DNA of 64,000 bases from Paralichthys olivaceus (lineage: Eukaryota; Chordata; Actinopteri; Pleuronectiformes; Paralichthyidae). Position 1 is the first letter of the stretch, and each line of letters begins with the position of its first letter. The notes beneath the pieces are model-generated. The model did not search any database. It was not told the origin of the DNA and saw only the letters and a program-made list of their open reading frames with translations. The DNA is taken from NCBI RefSeq assembly GCF_024713975.1, contig NC_091094.1, positions 10,153,001 through 10,217,000 on the forward strand. The letters are read 5' to 3'. The translations under genes and the position numbers were made by a program. Shown piece by piece: positions 16,260-54,000 of the stretch.

Positions 16260-18867
16260 TTAACTCTTTGGTTCAGCTCCCGTTGGGCCGTACGATGGGT
16301 TGTAGGGTGGATGTGCCATGTCGTCTGAATATGGTGGCGGTGGTGGATAAGACTCGCCAGGAGAATAAAGGGGGTTCATCGGGTGTCCCAGAGGAGATGG
16401 AACTGGAAAGTGAGCTGGATGAGCTAAAGAGGCAAAAATACACAGTTGGTGAATTGTTAGCCTGCTAAAAATGGATTCATTTTTTTGTTCTGTAACAATC
16501 ATGATAATAAAAAAATCATGAAAGGAGAAGGGTGTTGTTATTCTTTATTCTTGCTATTGTCAACATAGCCAATACTTCCCTACAGTGTCAGTAAACCTTC
16601 TATTCTCCTGTAGATGTTAATCTATAAATCAGTTTTAAAAATGACCCTAAACACCGGGGCACTGTAGTTTTTGGAAAATATTAGTCCATCAGCAATAAAT
16701 AGTGAATTTGTTTGGGATTATTTTAAAATGCAGATTAATCATATTAGCATTAGTGAGTCTTTACAGTAGAATGTTTGAGTGAGATTGATTTAAAATAATC
16801 TACGGTGGTGATGGTGGAACATGGCACTGGTGTGTTTTTAATAGTTTTTGGATAATATTTAAAAAGGTGATAATGGATATAACAGGCTTAAGTTACACAG
16901 GCACTAGATGTTAGCTGGATCAATTTATTTCTGGTTGTGTGTGTGTGTGTTTGTGTGTGTGCGTGTGTGTTGACCGTGCAAAAATATACTATATTACCAC
17001 GCCTTTATAAGCAACACCAACACTGACTCATTAATGGGAATCAAACAGCACTCACTTGCTTCCATGTATGAATGTGGTGGTGCTGTGGGTACAGGCAGGC
17101 CTCCATATCCATGCAGGGCAGGTACAGGCTGGTAGCCTGGGTAGTACTGATAAGGGGGGTGTGGCTGCCCAGGTACGTTGGCTACATAGGTGGTGGTTGC
17201 CACAGCTACAGGTGAAGTCATTGATTTAGTTTGACAATAGAGTAAACTGAGACACATTGTCATTTGTTGGAGAGATTCAACATTTTGGGAAACACACAAC
17301 TATAACTGGTTTCTTGCCACTGAAAGTTTATTCATCCACACTGGTTGAGCAACTGATCCAAGTCAAGGATTGACATTAACCGCTTCTCCTAAAATAGGCA
17401 GCATGTAATGTTATCACCTACAGCCATTGGGTTAAACGTCATATTTAGCTTAGCATACAGGAAGTGGAATCAAACATTTCATGTAGTATTTCCAAAAATG
17501 TTGAACTTTTCCTTAACTGTAACTGTAGTCACCATAGACTCTATTCAAAGATGGATGACACCTCTCCCCTTCTGCTCACTATCCAGAAATAAAGCTAAAA
17601 TAAGAAACGAATGCTGCCATCTTACTCATGTCTCATGCCAATAGACATCAAACATTTGAATAAAAAAGCTGAACATGCATTAGTGTGGTAAGAACTACCA
17701 AAATGACAGTTACCATCTTTGAGTAAAATGTATTTAACAACTCCATATTTAATCCACTAACATGGAGGAGGATTATGACATGTACCACAGCCAGCCACTT
17801 TTGGGGTGCAGTAATGTGACTCATCTTTAGATACAGTCTATAGTAAACAGCAGCACAGTCAGTACATTATAAAGTTTTACTGTGTAGTTGCCTGCACAGA
17901 GTAAACTCAAACAAAAAGAGTGGTCTTACTTTGGTTGCGTCTCTTTCGACACTTTTTGTAAATCAAGTAGATGATGAGAAACAAACACAGGACTCCAGCA
18001 AGACATGCAAAGGCGACTCCAAGGACTGCAGCAAGGTTGAGTGTTACTTTCACACTTCTAGAGCTGGGGGGGGGGGCAGAAACCTTTAGAAATGTTAATG
18101 AATGAATTTGATCTTTTTTTTAAACCTTTGACACATAGAGGTCACTTCAGAGGACAGCTATTGAAAAGATATTTTACAGCATATGCATGGGTATCCGTCC
18201 AGTTAAGTACATGTTTCTTCAAGTAAATACAAAAATGCATGGAAAAGCTGTTAAATGCCTAAAGAGGAGTAAAGATATAGAAAAAAATCCAGACTGAGGC
18301 TGTCATTATTCATGAAAGGGTTAATACTCAGAGTAGCCAGTGAACTGAAAAACTTTTAAAATCGTTTTATCAAAAAGAGACACTCATGTAAAATAACACA
18401 CCTGCGGCTACAGCCTCCTTGTTGCTCTAGTGTGAGAAGGTTGCTTTCTAGTCCACTGCAGCAGTATCTTGTGGTACAGTCTCCACAACAGTACCACAAA
18501 CCACATAGCTGAATTTTATGGTAGACACCATCCCTGTCCCAGTAGCTTCTGCACAAATCAGCTGAAAGATACACAGGTGTTGAGAGTGAGAGATTACATA
18601 GTTACAGAACAACAACTCCACAACTTTCATTTACATACAGTACATGTGAATACAAGCTCAAAACAGGTGTGATCACAAAAGTGTGGCACCCGATTATTAT
18701 TTCACGTTGCTTCAATGGATCATTTTCACTTGGTGACTATCTATAAATGAAGAGTCCTAATACCTGACACAACCTGAATAAATATCAAAAGAGAACTCAC
18801 CCCATACAGACGGGAGCAGGGTTAAACACAAAATACACACACGACTGGACAAGACAGTTGAAACCAT
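16260..18867 (-). CDS. Shisa5-like (scotin-type) single-pass membrane protein
   Basis: Five coding exons on the minus strand: 18801-18867, 18402-18561, 17930-18063, 17056-17205 and 16260-16414. They total 666 nt, or 221 aa plus stop, with intron phases 1,2,1,1 and GT-AG splice sites. Residues 1-22 form a signal peptide. Residues 23-75 form a short Cys-rich Shisa domain (LCRSYWDRDGVYHKIQLCG, then WYCCGDC and RYCC). A transmembrane helix (about 86-111) is followed by a basic stop-transfer KKCRKRR. The Pro/Tyr-rich tail carries PPPY at 196-199 and PPYN at 206-209, which are WW-domain ligands. Shisa5/scotin proteins act in the ER and endosomal membrane system and in p53- and interferon-linked apoptosis; the role of this copy is inferred only. 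It sits directly downstream of shisa5 in the same orientation and is probably its tandem duplicate. The tail is about 45 residues shorter than that of shisa5. Confidence 0.88.
17531..17846. repeat. MITE-like element with inverted ends in an intron
   Basis: The left end carries CACCATAGACTCTATTCAAAGATGG, typical of teleost repeats with an ATAGACTGTAT core, and the right end carries the inverted form AGATACAGTCTATAGT (about 17830-17845). The element lies in intron 3 of the shisa5-like gene. It is diverged, and precise ends and target duplication are unclear. Confidence 0.45.
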
Positions 18868-21663: not shown

Positions 21664-24600
21664 TTATCCAGTCCTGGGTGCGATATATTCTGGGTTGTAT
21701 GCAGGCTGCATATGGAAGTCTGTGTTGGCGGGTGGAGCCGCGGGCCCCTGCGTGGCAGGAGGCTGTAGAGGGTACGCTGGCTGGCTGGGGGAGAACGCAG
21801 CCTGGCTGTAAGGCATCGGGTTGGGAGGGTATGTGGGACAGGCTGCACAGAAAAAGGAAACAAGACATAAGAATGAAGGGGTTGAAAATGCTTATATAGT
21901 AACCACAAGTTCAGTTTTGCCCAGAGAAGTCACCATAAATGTGTAATTTCCTATTTTACAAAGTCCAGACATGACTAACTGTAAACCAGCAGCAGTTATT
22001 CCACCTCTGCTTCCGAATTCAGCTATTTAGGAAACGAAATTGCAGAATGAGTTTACTGTAATGTGTAATTTCCTTGTGATAAAGACTGCTTTCCTATAGC
22101 ATGCTGTGCGTTACTAAAACACTATACAATCACCAACTTTGTGTAATGAGAATTTTAATCCTAAAACTCTCTTTCTGTCCATTCCCCGTTTGAGAAAAAC
22201 TGCCGTCTTAAAATCGCAAACAGACAGCGATCATAAAAAACAAATGTGTTTTAACTGAGGAACATGAGTTTCATTTTTTTCCCATCATTTGCAACATCAG
22301 AAAAGCCAGGATGTGGCCACCTCTAAAAGAGTTGAGGAGTAGGTCTTCATTCATACTGTAGGTGGAGCCTATGTATTGAGTCATTTCACAAAAAGGCCAA
22401 TTTGCCACACCATGCCACTCTTCTCTGTAATCCAAAAACACTTTCATGTTGGGTAACATTACAGGCAGGGGAATTTTGTTACTGAATGCATGATGCTGCC
22501 CATTTATGTAGAAGGTTGAGCAGCTACTGAAGAAGAGGCCGTCTGTTTTTTTGTTTTGTTTTTTTAAATAGGAAAATGTATAACTTTTCACTTTTCTTCT
22601 TGTTTTCAAAGGTAATTTTTTTCTTTATCTTATCAATTAATAGTTTTCATCATTGTTTTTGCTTATGTTTAAACAGGACAACGTCTTTACCAGGACAACA
22701 GGCTGTTGTCACAATCATACCTGTCTCATTTTATCTAGGTCATCAAAAATAAACACTCACTGGCTTCCTGATATGTTGGAGGTGGCCCTGGTGTGAATGG
22801 CTGACCCTGGTAGGTTGTTGAGGGCATGGGTTGAGCTCCATACGCATGGGGCGTGGGCTGGCTGCCATATCCTGGCTGCACTGGTACGGGCTGGTAGGGC
22901 TGGTACTGGGGCCCCTGGTAGGACTGAGGATGGCTGGGTGTTGCAGTCTGCTGTTGAGGGTAATTCTGAGGAGTACTGGTGACCAGTGTTGTGTGGGTGG
23001 TAGTAGCTATCACAGCTGTAAGCAAAGTCAAAGCAGCAACAGGTGAGGACAAACATTTTGGAAATATATGCAGGCTTAAAAAGATCACTGGGGCTGACAG
23101 AATAAAACTATCCCCTAATAAAGAGTATGAACAACACTGTGATAAATGATGTCACTAGACTGACCAGCATTTGATTTTCAGATAATTACCCCCACTCCAA
23201 CAGTGGTGGTCAGATCTACTCATACAAAATGGAAAGTACAAATATTTACAAGAAAATAAAGAGAACTTCAGCTGGGGAAACAAAACTATAACGCGGTTTC
23301 AGGTTTCAAGGTAGATTTAAAACTTTGAGACTTTTTAAGACCGTGATGAATGAATTTTAAGACCGATGTCAAGTACAACAGATATAAAGGAATATCAGTC
23401 CCAGAATTAGCCTAGTAGAGAATTGCCCCCAAAAACACCAAATTATCTTGCAAAGTACATGAAGTCAGTATGTATCCATGGTCTTTCCCACAGCCCAAAT
23501 GGGTGCACTGAGATCAGTTCTGACCGGGGTATTTGTAGACTATTAGTTATTAGTTCCACGTGTTTAAATCTGTAGCTATGAGAAAGAAGTACACTTAAAA
23601 AAAACAACAGCTACAAATATTAAGGCCTTAAATTCAAATGATTGAGTTTTGGAATCTTAAGACCCCACAGAAGTCCTGTATTAAGCCAGCAAGAGAGTAA
23701 AAAAAACGAGTACTGTCCTATTAATGTTAACAAAATTCAGCATTTCTAAAATTATTGCACGCTTTTTCCGTTTCATTTAAATTTCTGCTCTAAAATTTCT
23801 CAACGTTTATCCAGTGCAAACTAGACAAGTGAGACAACAAAACGGAAAAGAGTGTGTTCAGATTTCATTTTGATTTATTAGTTCAACTGTCTTTTACTTT
23901 CATGTGAAATAGTCTCTCAGTTTGATAATCTATTCTCACAGTTTTTCTGTTATGTTATATACCACCAGTCAGAAAAAGGATGTTACTGCAGTCATAAACA
24001 TATAAATAAACACACCACCAAAACAGAGCAGAGACACAGAGAGGGGGAGCCATTACGACCACTTCCTGTAAATGACGTGGGAGGTTTTCCCCTCTGCGGT
24101 TGTCATGGAATCAATGAGTCAAACGAGGTGGAGCTCTCACATTCCTAGATGTGATCCCAACATGCATGAGCCCAATTCAGGGAATCCACATACTTGCTTG
24201 TGTAGCATGTGCCAGAGCACAGTGTCTGCATGGCACAATGTGAACAAGCTGACAGGGGTTTACATGACAGAGAGCCAACACAAATACACACACCGTTCAA
24301 GTGCTTTAAATAACATAAAAGTTCATGTATGTCTTTCTTAATATCTTAAACTCTTCGAAAGAGATTTGATGGACAGAGACAAAATGAAGATATAAGATCT
24401 GCCTCAGAGATGTAGATGAAAGTAAGAAAGAGGCTTTGTTACAAACCTCGAGGGAGTAATTTTCCGATTTTTCAGTCACCCTTAATGATGGGGTAGGTTG
24501 ACTAGTTTGATTCTGACGTCTTGTCTAAAAAATAAAAACCTTCTTGTGGGAACATGCAAGTTGCTCAAAAGCAGGAGTGGTCACAGCCAACAGCAGCAGT

Positions 24601-35500: not shown

Positions 35501-36536
35501 TACAGTGACCTCTTCAAGAATCGTAGTTCGAGGGATAGAAACCAATGTTTGTAGTGCTGTTCCATCAATTAGAATGAAATGATAACCACCTCTATGTCAC
35601 GTCCTCTTCCAGGCAAGGCTTTTGGCTGTGTTGGCGGCTACATCGCAAGTACCTCCGCTCTGGTTGACATGGTGCGTTCCTACGCCGCTGGTTTCATCTT
35701 CACCACCTCTCTGCCTCCCATGCTGTTAGCGGGAGCCCGACAGTCCATCCAGGTCCTCAAAGGGGAAGAGGGTCGCACTCTGAGACGCAAACACCAGCGC
35801 AACGTCAAGCTGCTCAGACAGATGCTGATGGACTCAGGGCTGCCTGTGGTGCACTGTCCCAGCCACATCATCCCCGTTCGGGTAATTCTAAATCTAGAGC
35901 CCAATTGAGCTCGTAGACAAAGATTAATAAATCAAAAATTAGGAAGATTATATTTGTGTCTTCCAATTGCCTCCACCCTAATCATTCGATTTGTTTTATT
36001 GTAATTTTCAGGTGTCAGATGCAGAGAAAAATACAGAAGTGTGTGACATCATGATGAGTCGTCACAACATCTACGTGCAGGCCATCAACTATCCCACCGT
36101 TGCCAGGGGAGACGAGCTCTTGCGTATCGCGCCAACCCCTCACCATACTCCTGAGATGATGAAATACTTTGTTGGTAAGATGGTGTTCTCGTCTTATTAA
36201 TATCAAACACGTTCAGAGAAATCTAACCACATGCTAATTTACAATGGCATTACATCTGCTTTTAAATGATGGTCCTGTTTGAACAGTGCACCTTTCAATA
36301 GAAGTAACTGTAGCTGTCTGTAGCTTTATCTTAGTAAATGTTAAATTAACCTTCTTCTCTGTCTCCCCTCCTCAGAGAGGCTGGTGCACACATGGAAGGA
36401 GGCAGGTCTGCAGTTGAAGCCCCACTCCTCGGCAGAGTGTACGTTCTGTCAGCAGCCGCTGCACTTTGAGGTTATGAGCGAGCGAGAAAAGTCTTACTTC
36501 AGTGGCCTCAGCCACCCTATCTCGGCCTGCGCATAA
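32527..36536 (+). CDS. alas1: 5-aminolevulinate synthase, housekeeping mitochondrial form
   Basis: ALAS1 condenses glycine and succinyl-CoA to 5-aminolevulinate in the mitochondrial matrix, using pyridoxal phosphate; this is the rate-limiting step of heme synthesis. Ten coding exons: 32527-32734, 32894-33076, 33168-33314, 33516-33735, 34238-34422, 34595-34774, 34893-35057, 35613-35881, 36012-36174 and 36376-36536. The frame is continuous, giving 626 aa (human ALAS1 has 640). Three heme-regulatory CP motifs are present at Cys8 ([10 protein letters not shown]), Cys33 (RCPIMME) and Cys96 (KCPFLAAEM), the signature of ALAS1. The glycine-rich loop is [10 protein letters not shown] (259-268). The cofactor-binding FVDEVHAVG has Asp397 and His400. 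The PLP Schiff-base lysine is Lys431 in GTLGKAFG, split by intron 8. The start matches the family N-terminus. The donor after exon 8 (GTCAGC) is weak but frame and protein continuity support it. Confidence 0.97.
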
Positions 36537-47400: not shown

Positions 47401-47674
47401 AAGTAGCAAGCATTCTCACGTTGCCCCTGTTAATTTCTACCGGAGACCAGTTGCTACAACACGCACTGCGCCATATCCAAACAGGGGCGGTGAAGGTCAA
47501 ACCCTCGGCCCCTGGACAAGATGTTAAAGTTAAAGCAAAGTAGAAAAACCACACGAGTACTTTGATCCAGATAAACATATCAGTTGTGCAATACTAGAAT
47601 CAAAGCAAACAGTACAAAGGAAAGGTCACTGTCAGTTTGACATGATGTTACTGGAACTTTCCCAACCAAGAGCC

Positions 47675-48097: not shown

Positions 48098-51000
48098 ATG
48101 ACGGTGAGTGTGTCCACGGAGCTGAAGCTGGTTTGTGACCGGTAGTTTCACTACTTCAGTTCTAATGAAGAGTTAAAATCACTGAGAGTTAATATACATA
48201 TGTGAGCTTCCTGTTCAGCATGATCTTCCTGAGTGCTAGCCTCGGTTATTCACTAATAGACTGATTATATCATATATGATCATTCTATTATATTATAGCA
48301 ATTATAGAAATTACAATTATTTATCTTTTTCCCGGAGCTGCAGTTTCTTTTCTGTTGAACAACAAAAACACAAATAGAGTCCAGCTGTGAAATTCAGAAC
48401 TTGCCATTCAAAACAAAAACAACCGAAACAGTTTGAATCAACCTCTACTGCAAATACAAATCCTGTTCAGATGAAAAGCATCACATATTAGGAGCCTTTC
48501 TATTAGGTACATTATAAATGGACCTTTAATCACTCTTGGGTGCAATGTTTGTTAGAAATGAGGTTGTTGTTGATGATGTGTCTATGGAGTTGATTGCATA
48601 TTAATAATCATGTTATAAGTTTTCATACAGTTTCCATAAGTGCTCCACATGAATCATAGACGAACTGAACAAAACCATGTGCAGGTGCTGAGCAACAGAA
48701 CTGTCACAGAAATCAGTCCTTTGTTTCATGAAAAACCTTGTCTACTGTGTCACAAGTGAATTTCTACTTTTCAGCTGCACATTCACTGCAGTTGACGCAT
48801 TTAATAAAACACTGCTTGTGTAGTTGTGAATTTCACACAGGTTGTATGTTCAAACGTTATTTCATAAATTGTGCTTTTGAGAAAAGTCTCACACGTCATG
48901 TATGCTGATCAGTTAAGTCATTTTTTACTGATGGAGCGTTTCCAGCCCTTGGAAGCACATACACCTGCTACTGCCAAGTTGTCAGTGCAAAAGTAGATAC
49001 AGATAAATACAATCTGAAAAAAAGGGAAAGACATAAGATTGTGTTTAACAAACTGTAGGAAACAACTTTAAAGAACCAGCTAACTGCAGCAGAAATCCTG
49101 TTGTCCATGAAGATTATCTTTGTGCAAATTAATCAACACTGTAATCAGCTTAGATCAGATTGTTACCAGGTTTTAATCAGTTGTCTCCATAACGTATGTT
49201 TGCTTCAGTTTGTTAAGGTCCAAGTGTAATTTACGATCAAAACGTTTTTTTTATATTGATCAATTGTTTTGTAATGCTCACAAATAATGATTAATTTCCC
49301 ACAGAATCCAAATGTGTAAAGTTAAATGTGATGTGTTATAAAAAGCATTTACTTCTCATTTCTAAGAACATAAAAACATTAAATACTTGATCAATTTCAT
49401 TTTAGAAATGCATTTAGATCAGAATTCAATCATCAGTATAATTGCTTTTATTTTCTGTGGAATGATTGATCATTGCACTTCATTCTGGTCATCTAGTGGT
49501 GTGATAGTTATTTTTAGGTAATGGACTGAAATGATATGAACGTGGAATCAAGTTGGTGGTTTACAATAGTTGTATTTAATGTTTTGGAATATAAAAACAC
49601 AAAAGCATTTTAGAAAACAGTACAAAACTCTGATATAAACAACATGGCCCTCTCCCTTCACAACTCAGTTCATAACAACTCTCCGAGGGTCCCTTTCATT
49701 TCACTGCATTAACTCTCGACGCCATATTTGTCAAAGTGTCTCATGATGACTCCGAGCTCCAGCTCCACGGTCCCCATGGCTTCGGTGTGCAGTCTGTATC
49801 TATCCGCTCCGCTGTACACGAGCTCCGGACTGCGGAGCTGGGCTCCTCCGCCCACGAACATTTGTGCGACCTGCTCCTGCCAGGAGCCGAGCGGCCTCCA
49901 GGTCACACAGCTGACCCGGTGGTGTCCGGGGCTGGACGGGACGTGGCAGTACCCGTACCCGAACAACTGGCAGCGTCCGAACGAGTCCTGGTGCCACACC
50001 TGGAGATGAACCTTCGGCCAGCCTTGGATTCCCTTGGTCGCGTAGTGCAGATCGATCGGGTGGCTCCAGTACGCCATGTCTCCGGTTTGGGGGACATCCA
50101 CCTGGGTCTGACCCTCCTTCAGCCCGGACAGAAGCCGCCATGCTCCTCCCGTGTGAACTCCCCATTTGCAAAACAGGCTGTTCTGTGGGAAACCACTTGC
50201 CCCCACGATCTGGCCGATAACATGCAGCTCCGCCATGTCACAAGCGTCCCTTCGCACAAAAACATGCGGCGACAGAGAGCCTCTTGTCCCGGCTTTAACA
50301 GCTAACTGAGATTAGCAGCCTGCTAGCAACACAGCTCGCGTCTCCTTGGCAACTCTGATATCCTTGTACCCTCAGTTTGGTCTGTCAGGCAACACTTCCT
50401 GTCAGGCTGTTTTCACTGCAGGTAGTCTGAAGTAGGGTATAAAAGACACGAAGCCAAATTTGTGCCATATAAAGTCACAAACATAGTATATTTGGATGTT
50501 GGTATTCGTTTGGAGCAGTTGAAATTTTTATATTTTTTTTGTATTGTGCCTGACAGGCATTTGGCAGGGCACATTGATCTCTATATATGTTGTCCTTGTT
50601 ATGCACCGTTTCTAAAACATCACGTGGTCTGGAGACAAAACGACACATCACAATATGTTATTTCTTTATAATCAAACACTGACTTTGGCTTCAGTAGAAA
50701 ATTAGAGCCAGGTTGTTGGTTTCGTTTAAACAGCCTTTAATAGAGCATAAGAACAAATACACTGCGAAACAGCGCCCCCCCCGCGGCTTCCCAGCTTCAA
50801 CCAATGCTCTGCAGCAGAAAATGGCCAATACATTTGAATGCAAAAGTTTAAATGAATTATAAATGTTCCTCATTTCTAAGAAAAATTATGCACTGGTCCT
50901 TTTTTATTTTACAAACTTACATTACATTTAGCTGATGCTTTTATCCAAAGTGACTCACAATTACAATTAGTGCATCTGACAAAGGCTGGGATTCAAGCTG

Positions 51001-54000
51001 CTGACCTTCTGGTTGGAGGACAACTGCTCAAGCCCCTCAGCCACAGCTGCCCAGATTACTTTAAAACATGTAAACATGGATTGTTTCACATGCAAAAGTT
51101 TGTTCAACCTTCTAAGTCAGTTTTTTAAACAACAAACATTAGAGGAAAACTTATGTCCAAACATAAGGGCATGAAGAATCCAGGTCCAGGCCCTCAACGT
51201 GGTCTGAAAAATGTAAAAGGCCTTTATTGAAACAGGCTTGAAGCACCACCTCTCTCTTTAAGTCAGTACTTAGTTGGAACAAAGCTTTCTTTCTCTGTCT
51301 GGCTTTAATATCTCACGACTGCAGTCTCTTTGTCTCTCTTTTCCCACATAGTCGGATCCGACACTCGAGAGACATTTCAAGGGTCACAGGGACAATGTGA
51401 CAAGTGTGGACTTCAGCTGCAACATGAAACAGATTGGTAACTGTTACCTCCGTCTTCTTGTTTTATTTTCTTCAGTGCTTTCTCTGGTCACACACTGTGT
51501 TCTGCTCCCTCACCTGTGCCTCCTGCTCCAACAGCCACAGGCTCCATGGACTCCTGTGTGATGATCTGGAACATGAAGCCTCAGATGCGAGCGTATCGCT
51601 TTGATGGACACAAAGATGCTGTGACTTCTGTTCAGTTTTCTCCCTCTGGCCACCTTGTAGCGTCCGCCTCCAGAGACAAGACCGTACGTCTTTGGGTGCC
51701 CAGCAGGTAAGTTTTTATTTTGAACTTTTTCTGTTAGAAAACTGCCACGAATGACAATTCCTCTAACTCATAAAAGCAACAAAATGAGATGGTCTTGCAA
51801 AATTACAGTTCCCCTCTTGCTTCTACCAGCACAGAGGAAGGCTCGCGTTGCAGAACACTCACTGCTTTTTATTGTTGTCTTAAACTTTAATGTTGTTTTG
51901 GTGTTTGTGCACAGGAAAGCTGAGTCGACAGCTTTCAGGGCTCACACAGCTACTGTGCGCAGCGTTAACTTCTCTGGTGATGGACAGACTTTGGTGACAG
52001 CCTCTGACGACAAGACTATTAAAGTGTGGACGGTCCACAGGCAAAAGTTCCTGTTTTCTCTCAACCAGCACATCAACTGGGTCCGCTGTGCCAAGTAGGA
52101 TACAAACACACATACACACTGTTTTCACAATTAGCCATCAACTGCTGCTCCAGATAATTCGACTTTAGTTTACATATATTAAGATTCTATACATGTCTGA
52201 ATTGTTTTAAATCTTAAGTTAATAGGCCTACATGTAATTACTACAATTGTAGCTGGACACTTAGCTGAAAGTGAGTTTTTGATTTCTAAAATGTATTTCT
52301 TGCAGGTTTTCTCCAGATGATCGTTTGATTGTGTCATCCAGCGATGACAAGACTATTAAGTTGTGGGACAAGAACAGCAGAGAGTGTATTCATTCTTTCT
52401 ATGAACATGCCGGGTGAGCACTTAAGACCAGGCTGATGTGTATCTGTGTGGGTGAAAGAGATGCCCTAACGAAAGAGACCAAGGAGACCTTATATTCTGT
52501 GTTTATAAATGAACAGGATGTATAGGAATATATTATGTACTGTAGATCATCTATGTTTGATGTGGTGGATGGTTAGGGAGTCCATCATGTTAGATGATTT
52601 CATAGTATTTGCTTTTTTAGTTGCAACCAGGAATGTAATTTTAAATTGACTTGCATTTTTTAGCAAAAACAAGGACCAGAGTTGACTCATGATCAAACGT
52701 CCTCATTAAATACTCAGAATCACTCACAACATATTTCTGTTGGTATTGGTTTTAATTAGATTGGGTTAAAAAATATTGCCAGTCAAAATGTCCTCTGCTG
52801 GTGTTTTCCATCAACATTTCAGAACAGATGGTTTACGTTAGTTGAATGAACCTTCTGGAATGATTAATGTTAGATCTGTAAAAGTTTGACCAAATGCCTC
52901 ACTACATTATATCTTGTGTTTTCTTCCTCAAGTTATGCAAACCATGTGGACTTCCATCCCGGTGGAACTTGCGTTGCTGCTGCCAGTACTGACAACTCTG
53001 TTAAGGTGTGGGACATCAGATCCCATAAGATGCTACAACACTACCAAGGTAAAGACAATGAAGAAAAAACATATCTAGGTAGTATGTAGTTTATATAGTG
53101 GAGTCCTTTGCTACAGCAAAACCACAATTAGCATCCAATCAAAGCATTTTTGTAGTTTTGATTTGAAGTTATTATTTGTTTTAGCTAGTGCCCTTTTTTT
53201 AAACCTGTCTGTTTGGAATGGGCTGTGGTTATGCTGCTTGCAGCTTTCTTTCTGAAACTGCAGTAACTGAGCCGTGACAAATAAAGACCGACTGCTGGAT
53301 TCACTTCAGAGAACCCTGATACCTCTGCCGCACAAAGAGCTGCTCACCTGTGTATTCAGTTTGGTGAAGCTTCATTCAGTACACAGGGCCTGCACTGGAG
53401 AATCAATGGTGCCTGTCCAAATTGCACCAAATTCCACACTGCACTTTCTTTGACCTTTAACAAAACACATGTCAGGTGAGAAACTGATAAGATGAACTGT
53501 TCTCGAGATATGCGAGCTACAGACAGACCAAGAGATTTTTAAAACTTTTTAGATGGATTAGATAGATCAATGAAAAACCACATCAACCTCAAGTTTATTT
53601 AACTCTGTTGCCTTATACTCAATACATCAGTGAAACCACACGTGCCTATTTCAGATTGCTATTATTTGCTGGATCACTATCACTGTAAAGAAGGGAGATG
53701 TCTCTTTGATGGTGTCTCCTTTTCCCAACCCCACTGGAAAAGCTTATGTGCAAATGAATAACTGAAATAACAGCAAGATAAAATAAAGATTAAAGCTCAC
53801 GACTAAAAGTGGTAATCGATCAATCAATCAATTCATTTTGTCCTGCATATTCAATGAGGTAAATGTTGATGCCTTTTCTAACCTGCTGCCCGGCCTGATT
53901 GTTCTAATCAGCTCTTTTAAATGGATTTAAGCAGCGAGATCTAATAATGCGTAATCACATCTGTCTGAGGAGATGGAGCATGATGTTAAGAGCTTTTCCT

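What the first reader, a model, noticed from the sequence alone, without database searches (positions are those of the whole stretch)
49709..50236. Intronless, intact b9d2 nested antisense inside intron 1 of poc1a
A full-length B9D2 frame (175 aa, human length) is uninterrupted here, whereas the human gene is split. Retrotransposition into a centriole gene's first intron, with acquisition of cilium-type regulation, would explain this. A transition-zone gene housed in a centriole gene may share an open, cilium-regulated chromatin domain. Antisense overlap could also let the two transcripts influence each other.
Basis: partly seen in the sequence, partly recalled or inferred. Interest (0 to 1): 0.7.

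Follow-up and report, generated by a model that had tools for sequence, protein, structure and literature searches.

The report
Intronless b9d2 replaced its parent gene
In this fish genome the only gene found for the cilium-gate protein B9D2 is an intronless copy lying backwards inside the first intron of the centriole gene poc1a, most likely pasted in from messenger RNA and now doing the job of a lost original; a neat new case of a known kind of event.

Summary
Window 49709-50236 (minus strand) is an intact 175-codon B9D2 frame (Pfam B9-C2, E 6e-63), antisense inside the 3,248-bp intron 1 of poc1a, whose exons 1-5 splice into one open frame. In the whole genome (588 Mb, 25 contigs) B9D2 has one match at E<=1e-3: itself. 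A B9 profile search also finds pieces of the multi-exon relatives b9d1 and mks1, so a spliced second copy should have been seen. A tmem91-like gene, exosc5 and bckdha, neighbours of human B9D2, still lie together on another chromosome without b9d2. Human B9D2 has introns; Astyanax b9d2 probably does. A new chromosome with the coding introns gone points to retroposition, then loss of the parent. The copy has an X-box about 110 bp upstream, the window's only cluster of three RFX half-sites, and a poly(A) signal. The 500 bp upstream of poc1a hold no such site, though two half-sites lie about 650-680 bp upstream. Age, expression and antisense effects were not testable. No poly(A) tail or convincing target-site duplication was found.

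The parts
49709..50236 (-). b9d2 coding sequence, single coding exon, 175 aa
   Evidence: only match in the genome at E<=1e-3
48098..48103 (+). poc1a exon 1, coding part (Met-Thr), followed by donor gtgagt; CpG-rich sequence just upstream
48104..51351 (+). poc1a intron 1 (3,248 bp), host of b9d2
51352..51436 (+). poc1a exon 2
51535..51706 (+). poc1a exon 3
51915..52094 (+). poc1a exon 4
52306..52413 (+). poc1a exon 5; further exon pieces follow to about 59.4 kb
50340..50353 (-). X-box (RFX site) GTTGCCAAGGAGAC, about 110 bp upstream of the b9d2 ATG; fits the restricted consensus GYTRYY N1-3 RRHRAC
   Evidence: consensus from PMC2375033 (passages)
50325..50393 (.). three RFX half-sites GTTGCY (starts 50325, 50348, 50388), the only place in the window with three within 150 bp
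   Evidence: 12 of 2000 shuffles of the 200 bp upstream reach three
49575..49580 (-). ATTAAA poly(A) signal for b9d2, about 130 nt past the stop
49626..49636 (.). 11-nt direct repeat, possible but weak target-site duplication (other copy 50351-50361)
   Evidence: 191 of 5000 random loci reach 11 nt

Best explanation
This is the only b9d2 found in this fish, and it is a retrogene that replaced its parent. A spliced b9d2 mRNA was reverse-transcribed and inserted, antisense, into intron 1 of poc1a (inferred). There it works as its own transcription unit, with an RFX-type cilium promoter (sites shown, function inferred) and its own poly(A) signal. It makes the normal transition-zone protein B9D2, a B9-domain member of the MKS complex at the ciliary gate. 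The multi-exon parent was lost from the tmem91-exosc5-bckdha neighbourhood (absence shown in this assembly; order of events inferred). Intron 1 is spliced out of poc1a, so the host protein should be unharmed (inferred).
For: Intact 175-aa B9D2 with no coding intron. One B9D2 match in 588,085,608 bases at E<=1e-3. The PF07162 search at E<=10 gives 7 matches: this gene, 2 pieces on C15 and 4 on C5. Four of the 7 pass E<=1e-3: this gene, both C15 pieces and one C5 piece. C15 is mks1 and C5 is b9d1 by tblastn of recalled human sequence on the fetched loci. Sensitivity control by local tblastn, overlapping pieces of recalled human B9D2 against the window at a 588-Mb search size: 28 of 31 pieces of 25 aa, and all 29 of 35 aa, 27 of 45 aa and 24 of 60 aa reach E<=1e-3. 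bckdha at C11:21.656-21.660 Mb (named by recall), exosc5 at C11:21.6290-21.6315 Mb in six pieces and a tmem91-like gene at C11:21.6246-21.6268 Mb lie within about 35 kb; in the 200 kb around them the best b9d2 hit is 28% over 32 aa, E 0.18. Human B9D2 lies by TGFB1 and TMEM91 and has a first intron (PMC7252574). Astyanax b9d2 has a coding SNP at g.3893, too far for a 528-nt uninterrupted frame unless its UTR is very long (PMC6054784). X-box and half-site cluster. The 1,261-bp stretch 49440-50700 has one match in the genome as DNA, itself.
Against: No poly(A) tail and no convincing target-site duplication: the best repeat is 11 nt, reached by 191 of 5000 random loci, and it leaves the poly(A) signal outside. 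No relative with the parent gene could be compared. A parent in an assembly gap, or missed by the search tool's loose first look, is not excluded; three of four b9d1 pieces stay above E 1e-3. RB-family matches are not on C11, so the Astyanax gene, which shares a scaffold with rb1, is not shown to sit in the same neighbourhood. No expression data. The X-box consensus appears in 98 of 2000 shuffles of the 200 bp upstream, and its source says that one X-box does not predict RFX control (PMC2375033).
Confidence: 0.87

Rival explanations
1. b9d2 moved into poc1a as DNA with its introns and lost them later in place (for example by recombination with its cDNA).
For: The retroposition hallmarks (poly(A) tail, target-site duplication) are not convincing.
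Against: Needs two rare events, a gene move and the loss of all coding introns, where retroposition needs one. No piece of the old neighbours came along: recalled EXOSC5, TMEM91 and TGFB1 and a fish bckdha piece give only four hits of 14-21 aa at E 0.086-0.75 in the window.
Confidence: 0.08
2. A silent or redundant retrocopy, with a working spliced b9d2 elsewhere.
For: Most retrocopies are dead (general knowledge); expression of this one is untested.
Against: No second copy at E<=1e-3 in the genome, nor at E<=10 in the profile search, although spliced relatives are found; frame intact with 129 of 174 identities to recalled human B9D2.
Confidence: 0.03
3. The intronless nested form is ancestral for fishes or vertebrates, and other lineages gained introns or moved the gene.
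For: Gar, shark and most teleost genomes could not be compared here.
Against: Human B9D2 has introns and lies on 19q13; Astyanax b9d2 looks multi-exon; the human-like neighbourhood is kept on C11 without b9d2.
Confidence: 0.02

Closest known systems
Amphioxus SYCP1 retrogene replacement (PMC5803294; abstract and section list seen)
   Same: A single-coding-exon retrogene became the only copy after loss of the multi-exon parent.
   Different: SYCP1 shares a bidirectional promoter with a neighbour and gained a multi-exon 5' UTR; b9d2 here is nested antisense in an intron and has RFX-type sites of its own.
Teleost intronless rhodopsin (PMC6650399, PMC11461388; starts of abstracts in the search listing)
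   Same: A retrogene took over a main role of the parent in teleosts.
   Different: There the intron-bearing parent survives as exo-rhodopsin; here no parent is found.
Mouse chagun: processed Cenpw cDNA inserted in Poc1a exon 8, LINE-1 mediated (PMC4619696; abstract and section list seen)
   Same: A retrocopied mRNA landed in the same host gene.
   Different: In chagun it lies in an exon, has target-site duplications and disrupts Poc1a; here it lies in an intron, is an intact gene, and the poc1a frame is intact.
European sea bass single-exon genes (PMC8207432; passages seen)
   Same: 1,585 single-exon genes reported in one fish; some are nested genes.

Membership tests
B9D2 (B9-C2 domain, MKS complex) | Full-length B9-C2 domain | tested here: met
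   PF07162, residues 4-164, profile 1-166 of 166, E 6.3e-63
B9D2 (B9-C2 domain, MKS complex) | Closer to B9D2 than to B9D1 | tested here: met
   129/174 against 56/179, human sequences recalled; separate b9d1 and mks1 loci exist
B9D2 (B9-C2 domain, MKS complex) | Protein sits at the ciliary transition zone | not testable with these tools
   Needs imaging; the mouse protein is described there in PMC4635004 (passage)
Retrogene | Intron-free copy of a gene that has introns elsewhere | tested here: met
   Frame uninterrupted; intron in human and, by gene span, probably in Astyanax
Retrogene | New chromosomal place unrelated to the parent's | tested here: met
   C2 against the tmem91-exosc5-bckdha cluster on C11; that this cluster was the parent's home rests on the human gene order
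Retrogene | Poly(A) tail remnant and target-site duplication | tested here: inconclusive
   No tail seen; 11-nt repeat reached by 191 of 5000 random loci; decay is expected in an old event
Retrogene replacement (orphan retrogene) | Parent gene absent | tested here: met
   One match in the genome, PF07162 at E<=10, sensitivity control; assembly gaps not excluded
Retrogene replacement (orphan retrogene) | Expressed and carries out the parent's function | not testable with these tools
   No RNA data; intact frame, promoter-like sites and poly(A) signal only
RFX target gene | X-box near the start, conserved across species | tested here: inconclusive
   X-box and half-sites present; conservation could not be tested

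The most novel reading that the evidence does not exclude
After the parent was lost, b9d2 and poc1a became a locked ciliary module: leftward transcription of b9d2 inside intron 1 of rightward-transcribed poc1a ties the amount of a centriole protein to that of the ciliary gate, so that RFX-driven b9d2 transcription tunes poc1a during the switch from centriole duplication to cilium building.
Probability: 0.08. Interest if true: 0.65.

Novelty: new member of a known kind. Interest (0 to 1): 0.42.

Why it matters
B9D2 is a core ciliary-gate protein and (recalled) a human ciliopathy gene. Its only copy found in this fish seems to descend from a reverse-transcribed message, so a structural gene of the cilium can be handed over to a retrocopy and keep its full frame. 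If shared by other fishes it is a clean character for dating the event. It is also a practical warning: knocking out or editing b9d2 in such a fish touches poc1a as well, and splice-blocking reagents for the coding exons will have nothing to act on.

Tried and rejected
Target-site duplication: AACTCTGATAT at 49626 and 50351 flanks the gene, but 191 of 5000 random loci in the window reach 11 nt, it overlaps the X-box by three bases, and no poly(A) tract was seen; not claimed.

Shared promoter with poc1a: not supported. The poc1a exon 1 lies about 2.1 kb from the b9d2 ATG; its 200-bp and 500-bp upstream stretches have neither X-box nor half-site; no alternative coding exon 1 near b9d2. Against this: half-sites at 47420 and 47450, about 650-680 bp upstream of the poc1a ATG, and one at 48691 in intron 1, and a further restricted-consensus match at 51120-51133 in intron 1, near exon 2.

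RFX tests were made in several forms, after seeing the sequence: GTNRCC N0-3 RGYAAC with up to one mismatch (12 and 13 hits on the two strands of the window), arm mismatches in the 300 bp upstream of b9d2 (20 of 500 shuffles reach the observed two), restricted consensus (17 in the window; 98 of 2000 shuffles of 200 bp), half-sites (12 of 2000 shuffles). They are suggestive and not corrected for the number of forms.

Poly(A) signals: besides ATTAAA at 49580 the minus strand has AATAAA at 49452; the plus strand of intron 1 has AATAAA at 48803 and ATTAAA at 49378, so early ending of poc1a transcripts is not excluded.

Relatives in other collections: in genome contigs 8 stretches and in viral contigs 1 stretch matched a pattern, none confirmed, as expected for bacteria, archaea and viruses. 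PDB: no match at E<=1e-3. Rfam at gathering scores and tRNA: nothing in the window.

Literature: ten searches, of which six showed only the top of a longer list (20 of 233, 15 of 1,133, 20 of 101, 25 of 46, 15 of 21, 10 of 4,035). No title or abstract start that I saw describes an intronless b9d2 or b9d2 inside poc1a. Only open-licence PMC text, without supplements, was searched.

Astyanax b9d2 shares a scaffold with rb1 and dlat. Listed RB_A matches lie on C15, C2, C7 and C1, none on C11, which does not confirm that the Astyanax gene sits in the exosc5-bckdha neighbourhood. The dlat request did not complete, nor the genome-wide TGFB1 request; in the 200 kb on C11 recalled mature TGFB1 has no match at E<=1.

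Full report
What is there. The minus-strand frame at 49709-50236 encodes 175 aa without an internal stop. It matches the Pfam B9-C2 domain end to end (E 6.3e-63). The gene is b9d2, with one uninterrupted coding exon.

The host. The plus strand carries poc1a. A six-base coding exon 1 (Met-Thr) at 48098-48103, with a gtgagt donor and a CpG-rich upstream stretch, joins exon 2 at 51352 and exons 3 to 5 into one open frame beginning [16 protein letters not shown]. It is identical to recalled human POC1A at 142 of 179 aligned columns; over the part for which I recalled POC1B the figures are 72 of 88 for POC1A and 56 of 85 for POC1B. Later WD-repeat exon pieces reach about 59.4 kb. Intron 1 is 48104-51351, 3,248 bp, and b9d2 lies in it antisense. 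No other phase-0 coding exon 1 of up to 120 nt with a GTRAG donor was found in 50237-51300, so a head-to-head arrangement is unlikely.

Is it the only b9d2? The window's own genome, 588,085,608 bases in 25 contigs, was searched in six frames. The protein has one match at E<=1e-3, the window copy. The B9-C2 profile at E<=10 gives seven matches: this gene, four pieces on C5 and two on C15. Four of the seven pass E<=1e-3: this gene, both C15 pieces and one C5 piece. On the fetched loci, recalled human B9D1 matches the C5 locus in six pieces, and a recalled piece of human MKS1 matches the C15 locus in three. So spliced B9 genes show up piece by piece, though weakly for b9d1, whose match to the profile is more distant than a second b9d2 would be. 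As a further control, overlapping pieces of recalled human B9D2 were run by local tblastn against the window with the search size set to 588 Mb: 28 of 31 pieces of 25 aa, and all 29, 27 and 24 pieces of 35, 45 and 60 aa, reach E<=1e-3. This control does not include the search tool's loose first look. A second b9d2 no more distant than human should have been seen unless it lies in a gap. As DNA, the 1,261 bp from 49440 to 50700 match only themselves.

Where the parent was. Human B9D2 lies by TGFB1 and TMEM91 on 19q13, has a first intron, and spans about 9.8 kb (PMC7252574, passages). EXOSC5 and BCKDHA as next neighbours are recalled. In this fish bckdha (named by recall), exosc5 and a tmem91-like gene lie within about 35 kb on C11, with a SAP-domain gene (hnrnpul1-like by recall) and opa3 some 45 kb further. 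In the 200 kb fetched there the best b9d2 hit is 28% over 32 aa, E 0.18, and recalled mature TGFB1 has no hit at E<=1. The window in turn holds no piece of the old neighbours beyond four hits of 14-21 aa at E 0.086-0.75. In Astyanax mexicanus, a published table places a coding SNP of b9d2 at g.3893, on a scaffold with rb1 and dlat (PMC6054784, passages). For a 528-nt coding sequence that means introns or very long UTRs; I take the g. numbers to count within the gene, as the crb2a and atoh7 rows of that table suggest. Against a simple picture: the listed RB-family matches in the present genome are not on C11, so I cannot show that the Astyanax gene occupies the exosc5-bckdha neighbourhood.

How it works. 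A place on another chromosome together with loss of the coding introns is best explained by one retroposition event, with later loss of the parent. The hallmarks of a young event are absent: no poly(A) tract was seen, and the best flanking repeat (11 nt) is reached by 191 of 5000 random loci. The copy has control parts of its own. On its sense strand GTTGCCAAGGAGAC (50353-50340) fits the restricted X-box consensus of PMC2375033 (passages), about 110 bp from the ATG. Seventeen such sites occur in the window on both strands, and 98 of 2000 shuffles of the 200 bp upstream have at least one. Three RFX half-sites fall in 150 bp, the only such place in the window; 12 of 2000 shuffles reach three. 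These tests were chosen after looking, and that paper says that a lone X-box does not predict RFX control. Rat B9d2 is named among cilium genes of a set in which 38 of 42 were bound at regions with RFX motifs (PMC8346558, passage). A poly(A) signal ATTAAA lies about 130 nt past the stop. The 500 bp upstream of poc1a hold no X-box or half-site; two half-sites lie about 650-680 bp upstream. Regulation borrowed from poc1a is therefore not supported, but not excluded. Whether the retrocopy carried part of its promoter along or gained it later cannot be told.

Shown: intact frame, nesting, single copy in this assembly, kept old neighbourhood without b9d2, RFX-like sites. Inferred: retroposition, order of events, expression, function at the ciliary gate (the mouse protein is described there, PMC4635004, passage), no harm to poc1a. 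Untested: age, selection, antisense effects.

What is known. Retrogene replacement is a known kind: amphioxus SYCP1 (PMC5803294, abstract) and, with the parent kept, teleost rhodopsin (abstract starts in a listing). A mouse mutant, chagun, has a processed Cenpw cDNA in exon 8 of Poc1a that disrupts the gene (PMC4619696, abstract and section list), a mirror image of the present case. In ten paper searches, six of them with capped lists, no title or abstract start that I saw describes an intronless b9d2 or b9d2 inside poc1a. I rate it a new member of a known kind, with moderate interest because a core ciliary gene seems to rest on it alone.

Noticed in passing
window 50920-51060: A stretch that resembles a widespread teleost repeat (SINE-like, by recall) lies between b9d2 and poc1a exon 2.
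   Followed up: no
window 35573-35908: An open frame that I read as an alas1 exon (by recall) lies upstream of poc1a on the same strand; in human, by recall, ALAS1 and POC1A are neighbours but face away from each other.
   Followed up: no
window 22735-23151 and 16994-17299, minus strand: Proline- and tyrosine-rich open frames that look like exons of shisa-type genes (by recall).
   Followed up: no
L014-L033 (G000 C11:21560001-21760000): Recalled mature TGFB1 has no match at E<=1 in the 200 kb around the tmem91-exosc5-bckdha cluster, so tgfb1 too may have left this neighbourhood or diverged; the genome-wide request did not complete.
   Followed up: partly
window 49709-50236: b9d2 has GC3 of 0.76 in a 40% GC window, higher than five poc1a stretches measured (0.46-0.65); a sixth row was read in the wrong frame and is left out.
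   Followed up: no
window 48803 and 49378, plus strand: AATAAA and ATTAAA signals in poc1a intron 1; early polyadenylation of poc1a inside this intron is conceivable.
   Followed up: no
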